This document shows positions 5,909-57,183 of a stretch of 64,000 bases of DNA, piece after piece. A program made the position numbers and the translations under genes. The stretch covers positions 35,717,417 to 35,781,416 of the forward strand of contig OY855904.1 in the NCBI GenBank assembly GCA_963693305.1. Direction: 5' to 3'. The notes beneath the pieces are model-generated. The model had not been told where the DNA came from, did no database searches, and saw nothing but the letters and a program-made list of their open reading frames with translations. Each line of letters starts with the position of its first letter. The stretch's first letter is position 1. The stretch comes from Meandrina meandrites (taxonomy: Eukaryota; Cnidaria; Anthozoa; Scleractinia; Meandrinidae).

Positions 5909-6088
5909 TCAACCTTGTCCGGGTGGAAAGAATAGTCTTGAAGTACCAGGCCCTATCAACCTCGGTAGTATGTGAGGGTCTGAACTCCGTCGACACGTAC
6001 AGCTTTTTGGTTCATTCGTTCCTGGAACTGTTTCATCAGTCGTGCGCCTTGTAGGTTTGCACTTCGCTCTTCGATTTGAGAACCACAC
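5909..6088 (-). CDS. PaxD: Gene A exon 4: homeodomain helix 3 and C-terminus
   Basis: The acceptor CCTAG precedes GTG TGG TTC, so the exon opens at homeodomain Val47. It encodes VWFSNRRAKCK, then a Cys/Arg-rich tail ending TSRLFFPPGQG and TGA (59 residues). B and C have homologous exons at the matching place. Confidence 0.88.
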   Translation of the reverse strand: MWFSNRRAKCKPTRRTTDETVPGTNEPKSCTCRRSSDPHILPRLIGPGTSRLFFPPGQG

Positions 6089-9000
6089 CTAGGGCGGCAA
6101 CAAACAGATGGGTTAGGCAATTTAAACAACAGTTATGTCAACAACAGCTGTCATAATGTTTTGTATGGAGGTAACGGTATGATCTTAAATTCCTAATCTA
6201 ACAATGCAATACAATGTAAATCTTTGATTATAATCCCTGTGTTTAATTTTGTTCAATAAGCCTTTTTTGAGCTCTTGATAGTGTGACCGGAGTGGGATAG
6301 TGTAGAACAATAGGGCGCCCAGAAGTTACAATACAGCAGTAAAGTTAACTGGGCGTGGCGTAGTTCCTCTCGGAGATTATTCCAGAGGCAAACGCAATAA
6401 CCCTAAAGCTAAGCTTAATTTCTGCTCATTAATAGCTTTTAGGTAGATAAGAAACCTGATGTAGTTTGCTCCCCCGAAAAGTCTTTCAACTTCGAGAAAA
6501 TAAGGAAAAATGGTTTCCGTGGTCGGAGTCTCAAAATGGCCCAATTTTTAACCCAAAATTCAATATTGTAAACTCTCCTCGCGTTCGTAAACAGAACCGC
6601 CGGGAGAGGTTTGGACGCTTTCTGCCAACAGAAAAACTCTTATTCTTTTAGTGGAATATGATTTCAATGCTTCAGCGAAACTTGTCGAACTAAAATAATT
6701 TAAAAACGAGGAAGAAGTTTTCTCGATAACTAAAACTTAATTTTAATAGTAATTTCCAACGGCATTATTTAATATGTGGTGTAACTCCAAATTTTCTCAA
6801 TCTTCGTTAAAACACACATATATAGATATTTATCCAAAACATATCTGAGAATTGGCTTGGGTTATCGTGCAAATTTTCATAGGAGCGCCCGTAAACTGTG
6901 TAAACACTTCTTATTACAAAACGCACGAAAATAAATATTTCAACCTCAAATATTCGCCTTTCCTTCTTCTTGCCTGTTATTCCGTTGTAAAACTTTAAGC
7001 CCATTTTTAAATGCAGAACTCTTCGCCACTTTGGCTACGACCGTTTTGTGACTGAGCGTGATACAACATGTGACATCATACTGTGAGGTCCCTGAGTCTG
7101 CGTAGTAGCGACGTAGGTCACGGAGTCGGTAGTAACGCAATACAAACCTTGCATATTTCAATGCAGCCAACAATGTTTGAAGGAAAAAATTGATCGATCG
7201 TTCTGGAGTTCTGATACTCACCTTTTTCAAGAGAATAGGACTATAATGAACGAAAAACGCTAAGGAAAAAGAAGCAAGAGAATATTTCGCTTTGTTGCCT
7301 TTCAGAAGCTGTTAGACAAGTCATTTTGGTGCGGTTTCACCCCGGGGGGGGGGGGGGGGGGGGTGGTTTTATACGGGGAGGCTCCGCCCCGAGGTCCAAC
7401 TCCTTACCCTTTTATATAGCATTTTTTTCAAAAAAGGCACCCCTTTCGTATACCTTTTATTGGAAAAAGGCACCCCTTTCATATACCTTCTTAAGAAGAC
7501 TGTTTTCCTTTTTCTAAACGCCTGGAATGAACTTTATTCCGACTGAATGTAATTCGAACCTAACTACTGTAGTTTAATTTGTAACCACTCTCACCGGCCC
7601 GCCTTATGAATAAATCGTTAAAACAGGAAGTCTTCTTGTCATTTTTTTCACGTAGCGCGTAATAAATTAAAATGAAACAGTCATAAGTTGCGTCTGCTTG
7701 ATCTGTTTTAATTCAAGGCCCTTTTTAAAACCCGAACGAAGATTTTCCTACCCTTTCATATACCTAAACTTGTGAAATCCCTACCCTTTTATATACCTGA
7801 GGACTGAAAATGGTACCCCTTTCGGGCGGAGCCTCCCCGTATAGGCCATTATAGGGAGTACCCCCCCTCGGGGGTTTCACAACATTTGTCTGATTTGTCT
7901 GACTTCGATGCATTGATAGAGACGATCCTTTCAACAACCCAAGCTAATTTACCGATATGTTTTAGAAAAATATCTTTATGTGCGTTTAAACGAGGATCGA
8001 GAAATTTTGAAGTTTGAGTTATGAACAATGCAATGCCGTTGAAAATTACTTTAAAATTCAAGTTTTTGTTATTCTAATTATTTTTTTTAATTATTTCAGT
8101 TTGACGAGTCTCGCTAAAGCTCTGAAATTATCTTCTAATGAAAAAAAAAAGTTTTTCTGTCGATAGGAAGTGTCCAAACGTCTCTGAGTGGTTTTGTAAG
8201 CGAACACGAGGAGTGTCTACCTAAATAAATGGACAAAAAAACAAAAACAAAGAATAGATTTTTCAAATTCTGCCACGAAATCAAGATTTTGCTCGGTTTT
8301 TCCTTAAAGTCCCTCTTAATGCCCGGCTTTTTGAAAAAAAAAAACAGGCCTAATTCAATCTACCTTTAAAACCTTTCGCTAAGAAAATTAACTACACCAG
8401 CAACAACAACAACAACCATATTTATTTTGCCAAAGATAAATAGAAAATATAATATAATGGCATAAAATGAATTAACTAAAATAGGTCAAGAAAACTACTC
8501 AGAATAGAAATAAACTAAAGGAGCTGAGTAGTTAAAAAATTTAATTGCTATGACTAGGTTGTACATGATTAAAGAGAAAAGACGAAAGAAAATAAGATAA
8601 TAAGGTAAGATAAGTATTCTAAGTAATTAAGTATACTGTAATTAAGAATGTATTAATTGTAGTTTAGATAATAAGTAGAAAAATAAGGAACAGAAAAAAT
8701 GAGAAGAAAAAAGAAAAAAATGATGATAATAAAAGAAAAAAAAAAGAAAAGGAAAAAACAGTACCAGTTGGTGATGGAACCAAAACCTGTTTATATGAGT
8801 TTAATACGAACAAAAAGAAAATTAAAACACTTAGCCAGCATAAAGCGGCCATAAGCACTTAAGAAATGTTTATTTATAGTTTGCTTAAATGAATCCAAGT
8901 TATTCCAGACAGAAGAACCAGAAAAGTACAAGTTAAATTTGCAATAATTAGTTCTAACACGATTGATATAGTAAGTTGATTTTGATTCCAGCCTAGTATT

Positions 9001-56600: not shown

Positions 56601-57183
56601 GTTAGTCCAGACTTCAAAAAAATAAAGATGTCGGGAAAAAGGTGGATAGTTTTCTCATTATTCCAAGAAAATAATTACCCGTATATCTCCACCCATCCCA
56701 TGATGGGGGACTGAATGAATTTAACAAGGCTTTTAAAATTACCCGGAAAATCCTGAACTTGGTACAAGGTACCAAGTGAACTTCGGCTCTGCGAAATGAT
56801 TAAACAGCTTGTTCAGTAAATGGGCCACCGTACACAAAATTAATTTATACCATTTGTTAGTGAAAGGCAGCCTTCAAATAAGGTGTTGCTCGCCAGTAGG
56901 ATCCCAGTGACCATGTACAACAAACTGATATACAATTCTGACATGCACTCTTTCATTGTCGTTTCCTCAGGTCTGGTTTTCTAACCGTCGATCCAAAGGA
57001 AAAAGGACAAACCAAAAGGCGGACGAGAGTAACAGCGACCAAGACAGGACAGAATCTGATGACTCGAGCACTAGAAGTCGTATTTTCTACCCGTCGTACA
57101 CTCCTGTTCCTGTGATACGTTACGCGCCCTACCATCCAGCGTACGCTTACCTGTGCTATAGACCAGGTTATGACAGTAGTTAA
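53659..57183 (+). CDS. PaxD: Pax gene E (paired domain + eh1 motif + homeodomain), 4 coding exons
   Basis: Predicted 354-residue Pax factor. Exons: 53659-53689, 54414-55013, 55321-55541 and 56971-57183 (1065 nt). Residues: [10 protein letters not shown] 1-10; paired domain 11-136; acidic Ser-rich linker; FSIANIL eh1/octapeptide-type motif 181-187; homeodomain 239-298 with canonical VWFSNRRSK (Ser50, Arg52); tail with SRIFYPSY and VPVIRYAPY (330-338). Exon 1 ends at a GC donor (GCAG|GCACGT), the only way to reach the phase found in the other four genes. The frame upstream of exon 2 is open back to an ATG at 54179, so a longer alternative start cannot be excluded. AATAAA at 57231-57236 marks the likely 3' end. 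Confidence 0.9.
54414..55013 (+). CDS. PaxD: Gene E exon 2: paired domain and eh1 motif
   Basis: Acceptor AACTATTTTAG|GT and donor CCTG|GTAAGA. The first 180 bases are almost identical to gene D. Confidence 0.95.
55321..55541 (+). CDS. PaxD: Gene E exon 3: homeodomain residues 1-46
   Basis: Acceptor TTGTTTGCAG|AA (split Glu) and donor [29 protein letters not shown] through SESRIQ. Confidence 0.94.
55542..56970 (+). other. Gene E intron 3
   Basis: No gene or repeat recognised. Contains a CGCGCG-rich short inverted segment near 56155-56190. Confidence 0.5.
56971..57183 (+). CDS. PaxD: Gene E exon 4: helix 3 and C-terminus
   Basis: Acceptor CGTTTCCTCAG|GTCTGG. 70 residues; acidic [10 protein letters not shown] stretch, then the aromatic tail ([17 protein letters not shown]) and TAA. 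Confidence 0.93.
   Translation, partial: VWFSNRRSKGKRTNQKADESNSDQDRTESDDSSTRSRIFYPSYTPVPVIRYAPYHPAYAYLCYRPGYDSS

What the first reader, a model, noticed from the sequence alone, without database searches (positions are those of the whole stretch)
5909..57183. Five-gene Pax cluster: three minus-strand tandem copies, then two plus-strand genes
Five complete paired-domain plus homeodomain frames occur within 51 kb, with one divergent pair (C and D). The sequence shows all exons and matching phases. Cnidarian PaxD genes are known to have multiplied, but the order, the two subgroups and the inverted arrangement would need comparison with other anthozoans.
Basis: partly seen in the sequence, partly recalled or inferred. 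Interest (0 to 1): 0.85.

Follow-up and report, generated by a model that had tools for sequence, protein, structure and literature searches.

The report
Coral Pax gene cluster sharing one domain
A stony coral carries its PaxD developmental regulator genes side by side, five of them in this stretch, and the exon for one DNA-binding domain looks as if it has been copied between neighbouring genes while the rest of each gene drifted apart.

Summary
In detail: five paired-domain plus homeodomain genes at 5909-57183, A, B, C on the minus strand (proteins 96-97% identical) and D, E on the plus strand; 20 coding exons, 14 of 15 introns GT-AG. Corrections: gene C has two copies of exon 1 and has lost the stop used by A and B; E's first intron starts with GC. 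The window cuts the cluster: a genome search finds 12 strong paired boxes, nine of them in one 95-kb cluster (these five plus four to the left), three elsewhere. In the trees all nine fall in one PaxD clade next to bilaterian Pax3/7, so they are not scattered. Gene g2 outside the window is a clear orthologue of a Nematostella PaxD gene, g1 a probable one; A-E group with stony-coral sequences. Unexpected: between D and E, fourfold-degenerate sites differ at 5 of 54 in the paired box but 13 of 15 in the homeobox (p = 2e-8). I read this as gene conversion of the paired-box exon between old duplicates; A-C show a weaker version. Protein data from other corals suggest, but do not prove, that it has happened repeatedly. 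A coral survey calls gene conversion very rare. Roles of the genes are inferred; no expression data were available.

The parts
5909..15354 (-). Gene A (PaxD, type II), coding exons 15324-15354, 13723-14268 (paired box), 9296-9483 (homeobox, first part), 5909-6088 (homeobox end, C-terminus, stop); 314 aa
17548..17667 (-). Decayed fragment of a type II paired-box exon between A and B (about 75% identical over 122 columns to exon 2 of A, B and C)
22390..30525 (-). Gene B (PaxD, type II), coding exons 30495-30525, 28828-29373 (paired box), 26171-26358, 22390-22569; 314 aa
34636..44192 (-). Gene C (PaxD, type II), coding exons 43798-43828 or its second copy 44162-44192, 42721-43266 (paired box), 41475-41662, 34636-34812; 313 aa; eight residues missing in exon 4 and stop of A/B lost, seven residues added
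43688..44416 (.). 364-base tandem duplication (99%) holding both copies of exon 1 of gene C
48337..50247 (+). Gene D (PaxD), coding exons 48337-48358, 48660-49247 (paired box), 49556-49818, 50041-50247; 359 aa
53659..57183 (+). Gene E (PaxD), coding exons 53659-53689 (donor GC), 54414-55013 (paired box), 55321-55541, 56971-57183; 354 aa
48659..49050 (+). Paired-box tract of D that is 93.6% identical in DNA to 54419-54810 of E; identity falls to chance level at both edges
54419..54810 (+). Matching paired-box tract of E
42710..43396 (-). Paired-box exon of C with about 130 bases of intron 1, 97% identical to A (13712-14398) and B; intron sequence on either side is not alignable with A or B for several hundred bases

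Best explanation
Five of the nine genes of a PaxD (Pax3/7-like) transcription-factor cluster of a stony coral. Shown: the gene structures; PaxD membership; nine linked genes in about 95 kb with the other three strong paired boxes of the genome elsewhere; near-identity of the paired-box exon among A, B, C and between D and E at synonymous sites. Inferred: A-C arose by fairly recent tandem duplication, with a further copy decayed. D and E are old duplicates (each has its own Acropora orthologue) whose homeobox, linker and tail diverged to saturation while their paired box was rewritten by gene conversion, probably more than once. The proteins act as DNA-binding regulators through the paired domain and the homeodomain together, as Pax3/7 proteins do (recalled); conversion would keep one paired-domain specificity shared between paralogues while homeodomain, linker and tail supply the differences.
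For: Domains and spliced models. Nine-gene cluster. PaxD clade 99/99 with 56 rows and 100/98 with 47 rows. D versus E fourfold differences: paired domain 5/54, linker 12/16, homeodomain 13/15, tail 8/11, Fisher p 2e-8 for paired against homeodomain. Control over all 36 gene pairs of the cluster (slightly different domain limits): only D/E (4/54) and the three pairs among A, B, C (0/55, 0/56, 0/56) are low, the other 32 are 56-93% different, so the exon is not under general synonymous constraint. Acropora muricata D and E: 121/124 in the paired domain, more than to any other sequence compared, but 45/57 in the homeodomain. Over five D/E pairs the true pairing is the best of 120. A versus C: exon 2 differs at 1/86 fourfold sites against 17% in alignable noncoding DNA.
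Against: Synonymous data exist for this one genome only; other corals were compared as proteins. The protein support for repeated conversion is thin: the own partner is strictly best for 1 of 5 D proteins, tied best for 3, and not best for the window's own D (0.939 against 0.949 with Acropora E); Acropora E prefers its own D over the window's E by one residue (121 against 120 of 124). Two of the five pairs come from unnamed contigs. Acropora muricata D and E are listed with different longest contigs, so their linkage is not shown. For A-C, exons 3 and 4 also have few fourfold differences, so recent duplication explains part. No transcripts of this coral; gene C may be decaying. The grouping of D/E with types II and III is weak without long rows (87/77; alternative p-AU 0.179).
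Confidence: 0.65

Rival explanations
1. No gene conversion: the paired box is held by strong selection, at protein and at synonymous level, and A-C are simply young tandem copies.
For: Paired domains are conserved (D and E 117/124 identical). Few fourfold differences in all exons of A-C, not only exon 2, fit recent duplication.
Against: Fourfold sites of the same exon are 56-93% different in the other 32 gene pairs of the cluster, so there is no general synonymous constraint. D/E homeobox fourfold sites are saturated (13/15, 9/11). Identity of D and E drops to chance level at the edges of the paired box.
Confidence: 0.22
2. A single exon replacement: D or E received the other's paired-box exon once, recently, with no continuing process.
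For: One sharp tract with a uniform 9% fourfold difference.
Against: Acropora D and E, in a different lineage, are also closer to each other in the paired domain than to their orthologues here (121/124 against 116 and 120), and the true pairing of five D/E pairs is the best of 120; both are protein-level and modest.
Confidence: 0.1
3. Assembly artefact: haplotypes or repeats laid out as tandem copies.
For: A, B and C are very similar; a paper read in passages warns of this for recent Nematostella homeobox duplicates (PMC1779571).
Against: Introns of A, B and C differ widely; C has its own deletion, stop loss and exon 1 duplication; Oculina has its own type II copies.
Confidence: 0.03

Closest known systems
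PaxD1-D4 of Nematostella vectensis
   Same: Several PaxD genes in one anthozoan (seven Pax genes, PaxA, B, C, D1-D4; PMC5584322, passages). The Nematostella sequences P0166 (PaxD2) and P0222 fall in the same PaxD clade.
   Different: g2 pairs firmly with P0222 (100/100) and g1 loosely with PaxD2 (84/68, weaker). A-E, g3 and g4 have no Nematostella partner in my set, which held two of the four. I could not test linkage in Nematostella.
Amphioxus Pax3/7a and Pax3/7b
   Same: Tandem Pax3/7 duplicates with identical paired domains and diverged linkers and tails; [quoted passage not shown]
   Different: Two genes; there the homeodomain is identical too. Here D and E share only the paired box and nine genes are linked.
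Capitella teleta Dlx pair
   Same: Linked homeobox duplicates with a conversion tract limited to the conserved domain (PMC3199776, passages).
   Different: Homeobox, not paired box; another gene class; two genes.
Tandemly duplicated genes of coral genomes (Noel et al. 2023)
   Same: Large, old tandem arrays are common in corals (PMC10236652, passages).
   Different: The paper states that gene conversion is very rare in corals; its main text has no occurrence of Pax or homeobox. This locus looks like an exception.

Membership tests
Pax proteins with homeodomain | Paired domain | tested here: met
   five of five, PAX E 2e-51 to 3.6e-49
Pax proteins with homeodomain | Paired-type homeodomain with serine at position 50 (WFSN) | tested here: met
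   WFSN in A-E; Homeodomain HMM met for C, D, E, A and B by alignment. Outside the window g3 has WFAN
PaxD / Pax3/7 | Groups with cnidarian PaxD and bilaterian Pax3/7, apart from PaxB/Pax2/5/8, Pax1/9 and Pax6 | tested here: met
   PaxD clade 41 rows 99/99, next to Pax3/7 at 96/88; 38 rows 100/98. The class labels of the reference rows other than PaxD2, Pax3/7B, Pax7, Pax3, Pax8, Pax9 and Pax1 names given by their sources are recalled
PaxD / Pax3/7 | Octapeptide-like motif between the two domains | tested here: inconclusive
   read by eye: FSIDNILK in D, FSIANILS in E, YMIASILN in A-C; no score was computed
PRD-class homeobox genes | Intron after homeobox codon 46 (position 139) | tested here: met
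   all five genes split the homeobox there; ancestral position according to PMC1779571 (passage)
Gene cluster of one Pax class | Members adjacent, other Pax classes elsewhere | tested here: met
   nine of the 12 strong paired boxes on C2 within 93 kb, three on C5 and C8; g1-g4 identified as PaxD relatives
Concerted evolution by gene conversion | Low synonymous divergence limited to a tract between paralogues otherwise saturated | tested here: met
   D/E 5/54 against 13/15; edges; control pairs
Concerted evolution by gene conversion | Paralogues more alike within than between species | tested here: inconclusive
   Acropora met; best of 120 pairings over five species, but strictly best partner for only one of five D proteins; protein only
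Functional transcription factors | Transcribed and DNA-binding | not testable with these tools
   indirect only: type II relatives P0011, P0046 and P0047 hold the four exons joined on contigs of 1,277, 1,372 and 1,353 bases, which fits cDNA

The most novel reading that the evidence does not exclude
Stony corals keep an ancient PaxD cluster in which one paired-box exon is passed repeatedly by gene conversion between paralogues older than the split of the Acropora and Oculina lineages, so that one half of a two-part DNA-binding protein evolves in concert while the other half evolves independently.
Probability: 0.5. Interest if true: 0.72.

Novelty: new variant of a known kind. Interest (0 to 1): 0.57.

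Why it matters
Pax3/7 genes are central developmental regulators and few in most animals (recalled). A coral with nine linked PaxD genes, three of them near-identical, is a natural test of how such genes multiply. If the paired box is shared by conversion, trees built on the paired domain will misread orthology, gene conversion in corals is less rare than claimed, and the two DNA-binding halves of Pax proteins can be watched evolving under different rules. g1 and g2 tie the cluster to sea-anemone PaxD genes, so its age can be tested in any chromosome-scale anthozoan genome.

Tried and rejected
Scattered Pax classes: rejected by three trees. Paired-domain-like transposases: PF00292 has 70 further matches in this genome, the best at 1.1e-26, well apart from the twelve strong ones (9.1e-68 to 6.0e-43); several have open frames of 300-400 aa, which fits Tc1-like elements (recalled, not followed up). 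RNA genes in the window: none by ARAGORN and none at Rfam gathering scores. Other protein genes: nine further ORFs of the window gave no Pfam match above a cut-off. GC-biased conversion: third-position GC of the paired box of D and E (0.50, 0.48) is not above that of the whole coding sequence (0.50, 0.47). A blast against phages and a bacterial promoter scan say nothing about an animal genome. No structure prediction was run. The three other strong paired boxes: L001 groups with Nematostella P185 and Desmophyllum P203, which I call PaxB from recall; L002 and L003 are PaxA/PaxC-like by elimination only. The D-type relative P0130 was not used as transcript evidence because its start reads like intron.

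First inference replaced: I first guessed a sixth gene from a shared contig length (P0066); the genome search gave direct positions (g4, 98.9% identical to P0066).

Full report
What is there. The window holds five Pax genes of four coding exons each. Stop-to-stop frames and Pfam show five paired boxes at E 2e-51 to 3.6e-49. Tblastn with coral relatives locates the homeobox exons and last exons, and inspection of the junctions gives full models: A, B, C on the minus strand, D, E on the plus strand. Fourteen of fifteen introns are GT-AG. The first intron of E starts CAG|GC; its exon, [11 protein letters not shown], was recognised from the Oculina protein [11 protein letters not shown]. A, B and C proteins are 95.8-96.8% identical, D and E 67.7%, and the two subgroups 41.6-44.4% (C was then counted with a slightly short last exon and E without exon 1).

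Oddities inside. Exon 1 of C lies in a 364-base tandem duplication, so two copies exist. C lacks eight residues in exon 4 and has lost the stop used by A and B, running on for seven residues. A decayed paired-box fragment of about 120 bases lies between A and B.

The cluster is larger. The window is C2:35717417-35781416 of a genome of 551 Mb in 56 contigs. The paired-domain family has 82 matches there at E 0.001 or better, with 150 of 172 candidates scored; twelve are strong (9.1e-68 to 6.0e-43; the next is 1.1e-26). Nine of the twelve lie within 35,679,297-35,772,203 of C2: g1 (+), g2 (-), g3 (-), g4 (+), then A, B, C (-), D, E (+). To the stop of E the cluster measures 95 kb. The three others are on C5 and C8. 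A search with the B protein, 126 of 252 candidates scored, lists the type II last exon only at A, B and C. The four outside genes were recognised by tblastn. A forkhead gene lies about 26 kb left of g1 and an immunoglobulin-domain frame about 20 kb right of E. GIY-YIG frames lie left of the cluster, one beside a weak reverse-transcriptase match; another, below the Pfam cut-off, lies inside it between g3 and g4 (I take them for Penelope-like elements, from recall).

What they are. The trees use a hand-picked part of the proteins returned: 47 rows, 56 rows, and 47 of those 56 with nine long or partial rows left out. Each protein search lists only the best 120 of 224, 4,675 and 6,805 hits. All nine cluster genes fall in one PaxD clade (41 rows, 99/99), without g3, 38 rows at 100/98. 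Bilaterian Pax3/7 joins at 96/88. g1 groups with Orbicella and Montipora PaxD (100/100) and more loosely with Nematostella PaxD2 and two sea anemones (84/68; weaker). g2 groups with a Montipora gene and another Nematostella PaxD (100/100). I call g4 and its relatives type III and A-C and theirs type II. D and E each have an Acropora partner (100/99 and 94/90), so their split predates the divergence of the Acropora and Oculina lineages. A-E, g3 and g4 form a group with stony-coral sequences only (30 rows, 98/97); without long rows it is 87/77 and an alternative that separates D/E from types II and III is not rejected (p-AU 0.179).

Other corals. In Oculina the gene tags G001319 (type III), G001323 and G001326 (type II) and G001334 (D) run in the order of g4, A-C, D here, and the eight Oculina proteins I used are all listed with a longest contig of 48,979,667 bases. 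Equal contig lengths also suggest linkage of types II and E in Desmophyllum, III and D in Pocillopora, and II with other PaxD in two Montipora species, and of several types on unnamed contigs. Acropora muricata D and E are listed with different longest contigs. All this is a proxy: I could not read those genomes.

The unexpected result. D and E paired domains are 95% identical in DNA. Fourfold-degenerate sites differ at 5 of 54 in the paired domain, 12 of 16 in the linker, 13 of 15 in the homeodomain and 8 of 11 in the tail (Fisher p = 2e-8, paired domain against homeodomain; with shorter homeodomain limits 9 of 11). Identity falls to chance level at both edges. Over all 36 gene pairs of the cluster only D/E (4/54) and the three pairs among A, B, C (0/55, 0/56, 0/56) are low; the other 32 differ at 56-93%, so the exon is not under general synonymous constraint. 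In Acropora muricata D and E share 121 of 124 paired-domain residues but 45 of 57 homeodomain residues, while Acropora and window orthologues share 116 (D) and 120 (E) of 124, and 53 and 55 of 57. Over five D/E pairs, two from unnamed contigs and 98 of 121 columns usable, the true pairing is the best of 120. Results against: within that test the own partner is strictly best for one of five D proteins, tied for three and not best for the window's D; and the window's D is closer to Oculina D (121/124) than to E (117/124). So the tract in this genome is well supported, its repetition in other lineages only moderately; I set the odds of repeated conversion at one half for that reason. For A-C the case is weaker: exon 2 has 1 of 86 fourfold differences between A and C against 17% in alignable noncoding DNA (p = 2e-6; A/B 2 of 85, p = 0.004; B/C 3 of 86, p = 0.0009) and the tract ends abruptly, but exons 3 and 4 also have few differences, so recent duplication accounts for part.

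How it most likely works. Shown: structures, class, linkage, the synonymous pattern. Inferred: DNA-binding regulators that use the paired domain and a serine-50 homeodomain together; an octapeptide-like motif is visible by eye in A-E, g2 and g3 (recalled as a Groucho contact); conversion keeps the paired domain shared. Role: not shown. In papers seen as passages, PaxD expression is higher in the oral region of settling Acropora (PMC3204972), a Pax3/7 marks one group of Stylophora neurons (PMC8162421), and a Pax-3-B-like paralogue pair has similar expression in Acropora tenuis gastrulation (PMC12360431). None can be assigned to A-E here.

Known or new. Several PaxD genes are known from Nematostella (PMC5584322, passages). 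Possible conversion is suggested for amphioxus Pax3/7a/b (PMC6010424, passages) and for Capitella Dlx (PMC3199776, passages). A coral survey states that gene conversion is very rare (PMC10236652, passages). The listings of seven searches show no paper on a cnidarian PaxD cluster; I saw titles and abstract starts, with passages of eleven papers, and most subscription papers, including the original Acropora and Nematostella Pax papers, are not in that library. Hence: a new variant of a known kind.

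Noticed in passing
48337-50247 (gene D): D and its orthologues in Oculina, Pocillopora and Acropora have histidine instead of the usual arginine in the third helix of the homeodomain (WFSNHR).
   Followed up: partly
G000:C2:35694361-35695705, left of the window (gene g3): A ninth, fast-evolving PaxD gene with alanine at homeodomain position 50 (WFANRR); longest PaxD branch in the tree.
   Followed up: partly
all of A-E; g2 and g4 outside the window: A short C-terminal motif, [ST]RIF[FY]P or close to it, recurs in A-E, g2 and g4 but is not seen in g1; function unknown to me.
   Followed up: no
34923-35564: Inverted repeat with 287-base arms, 98% complementary, 68 bases apart, in the long third intron of gene C.
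   Followed up: no
62619-63820: Nested inverted repeats, arms of 362 and 225 bases, 89-91% complementary, right of the cluster.
   Followed up: no
L009:2285-3166 (-), about 26 kb left of g1: Forkhead-domain gene (Pfam E 4.6e-31), nearest other regulator found next to the cluster.
   Followed up: no
23510-23986 (+): Open frame of 158 aa in intron 3 of gene B, endonuclease-like to my eye; no Pfam match.
   Followed up: no
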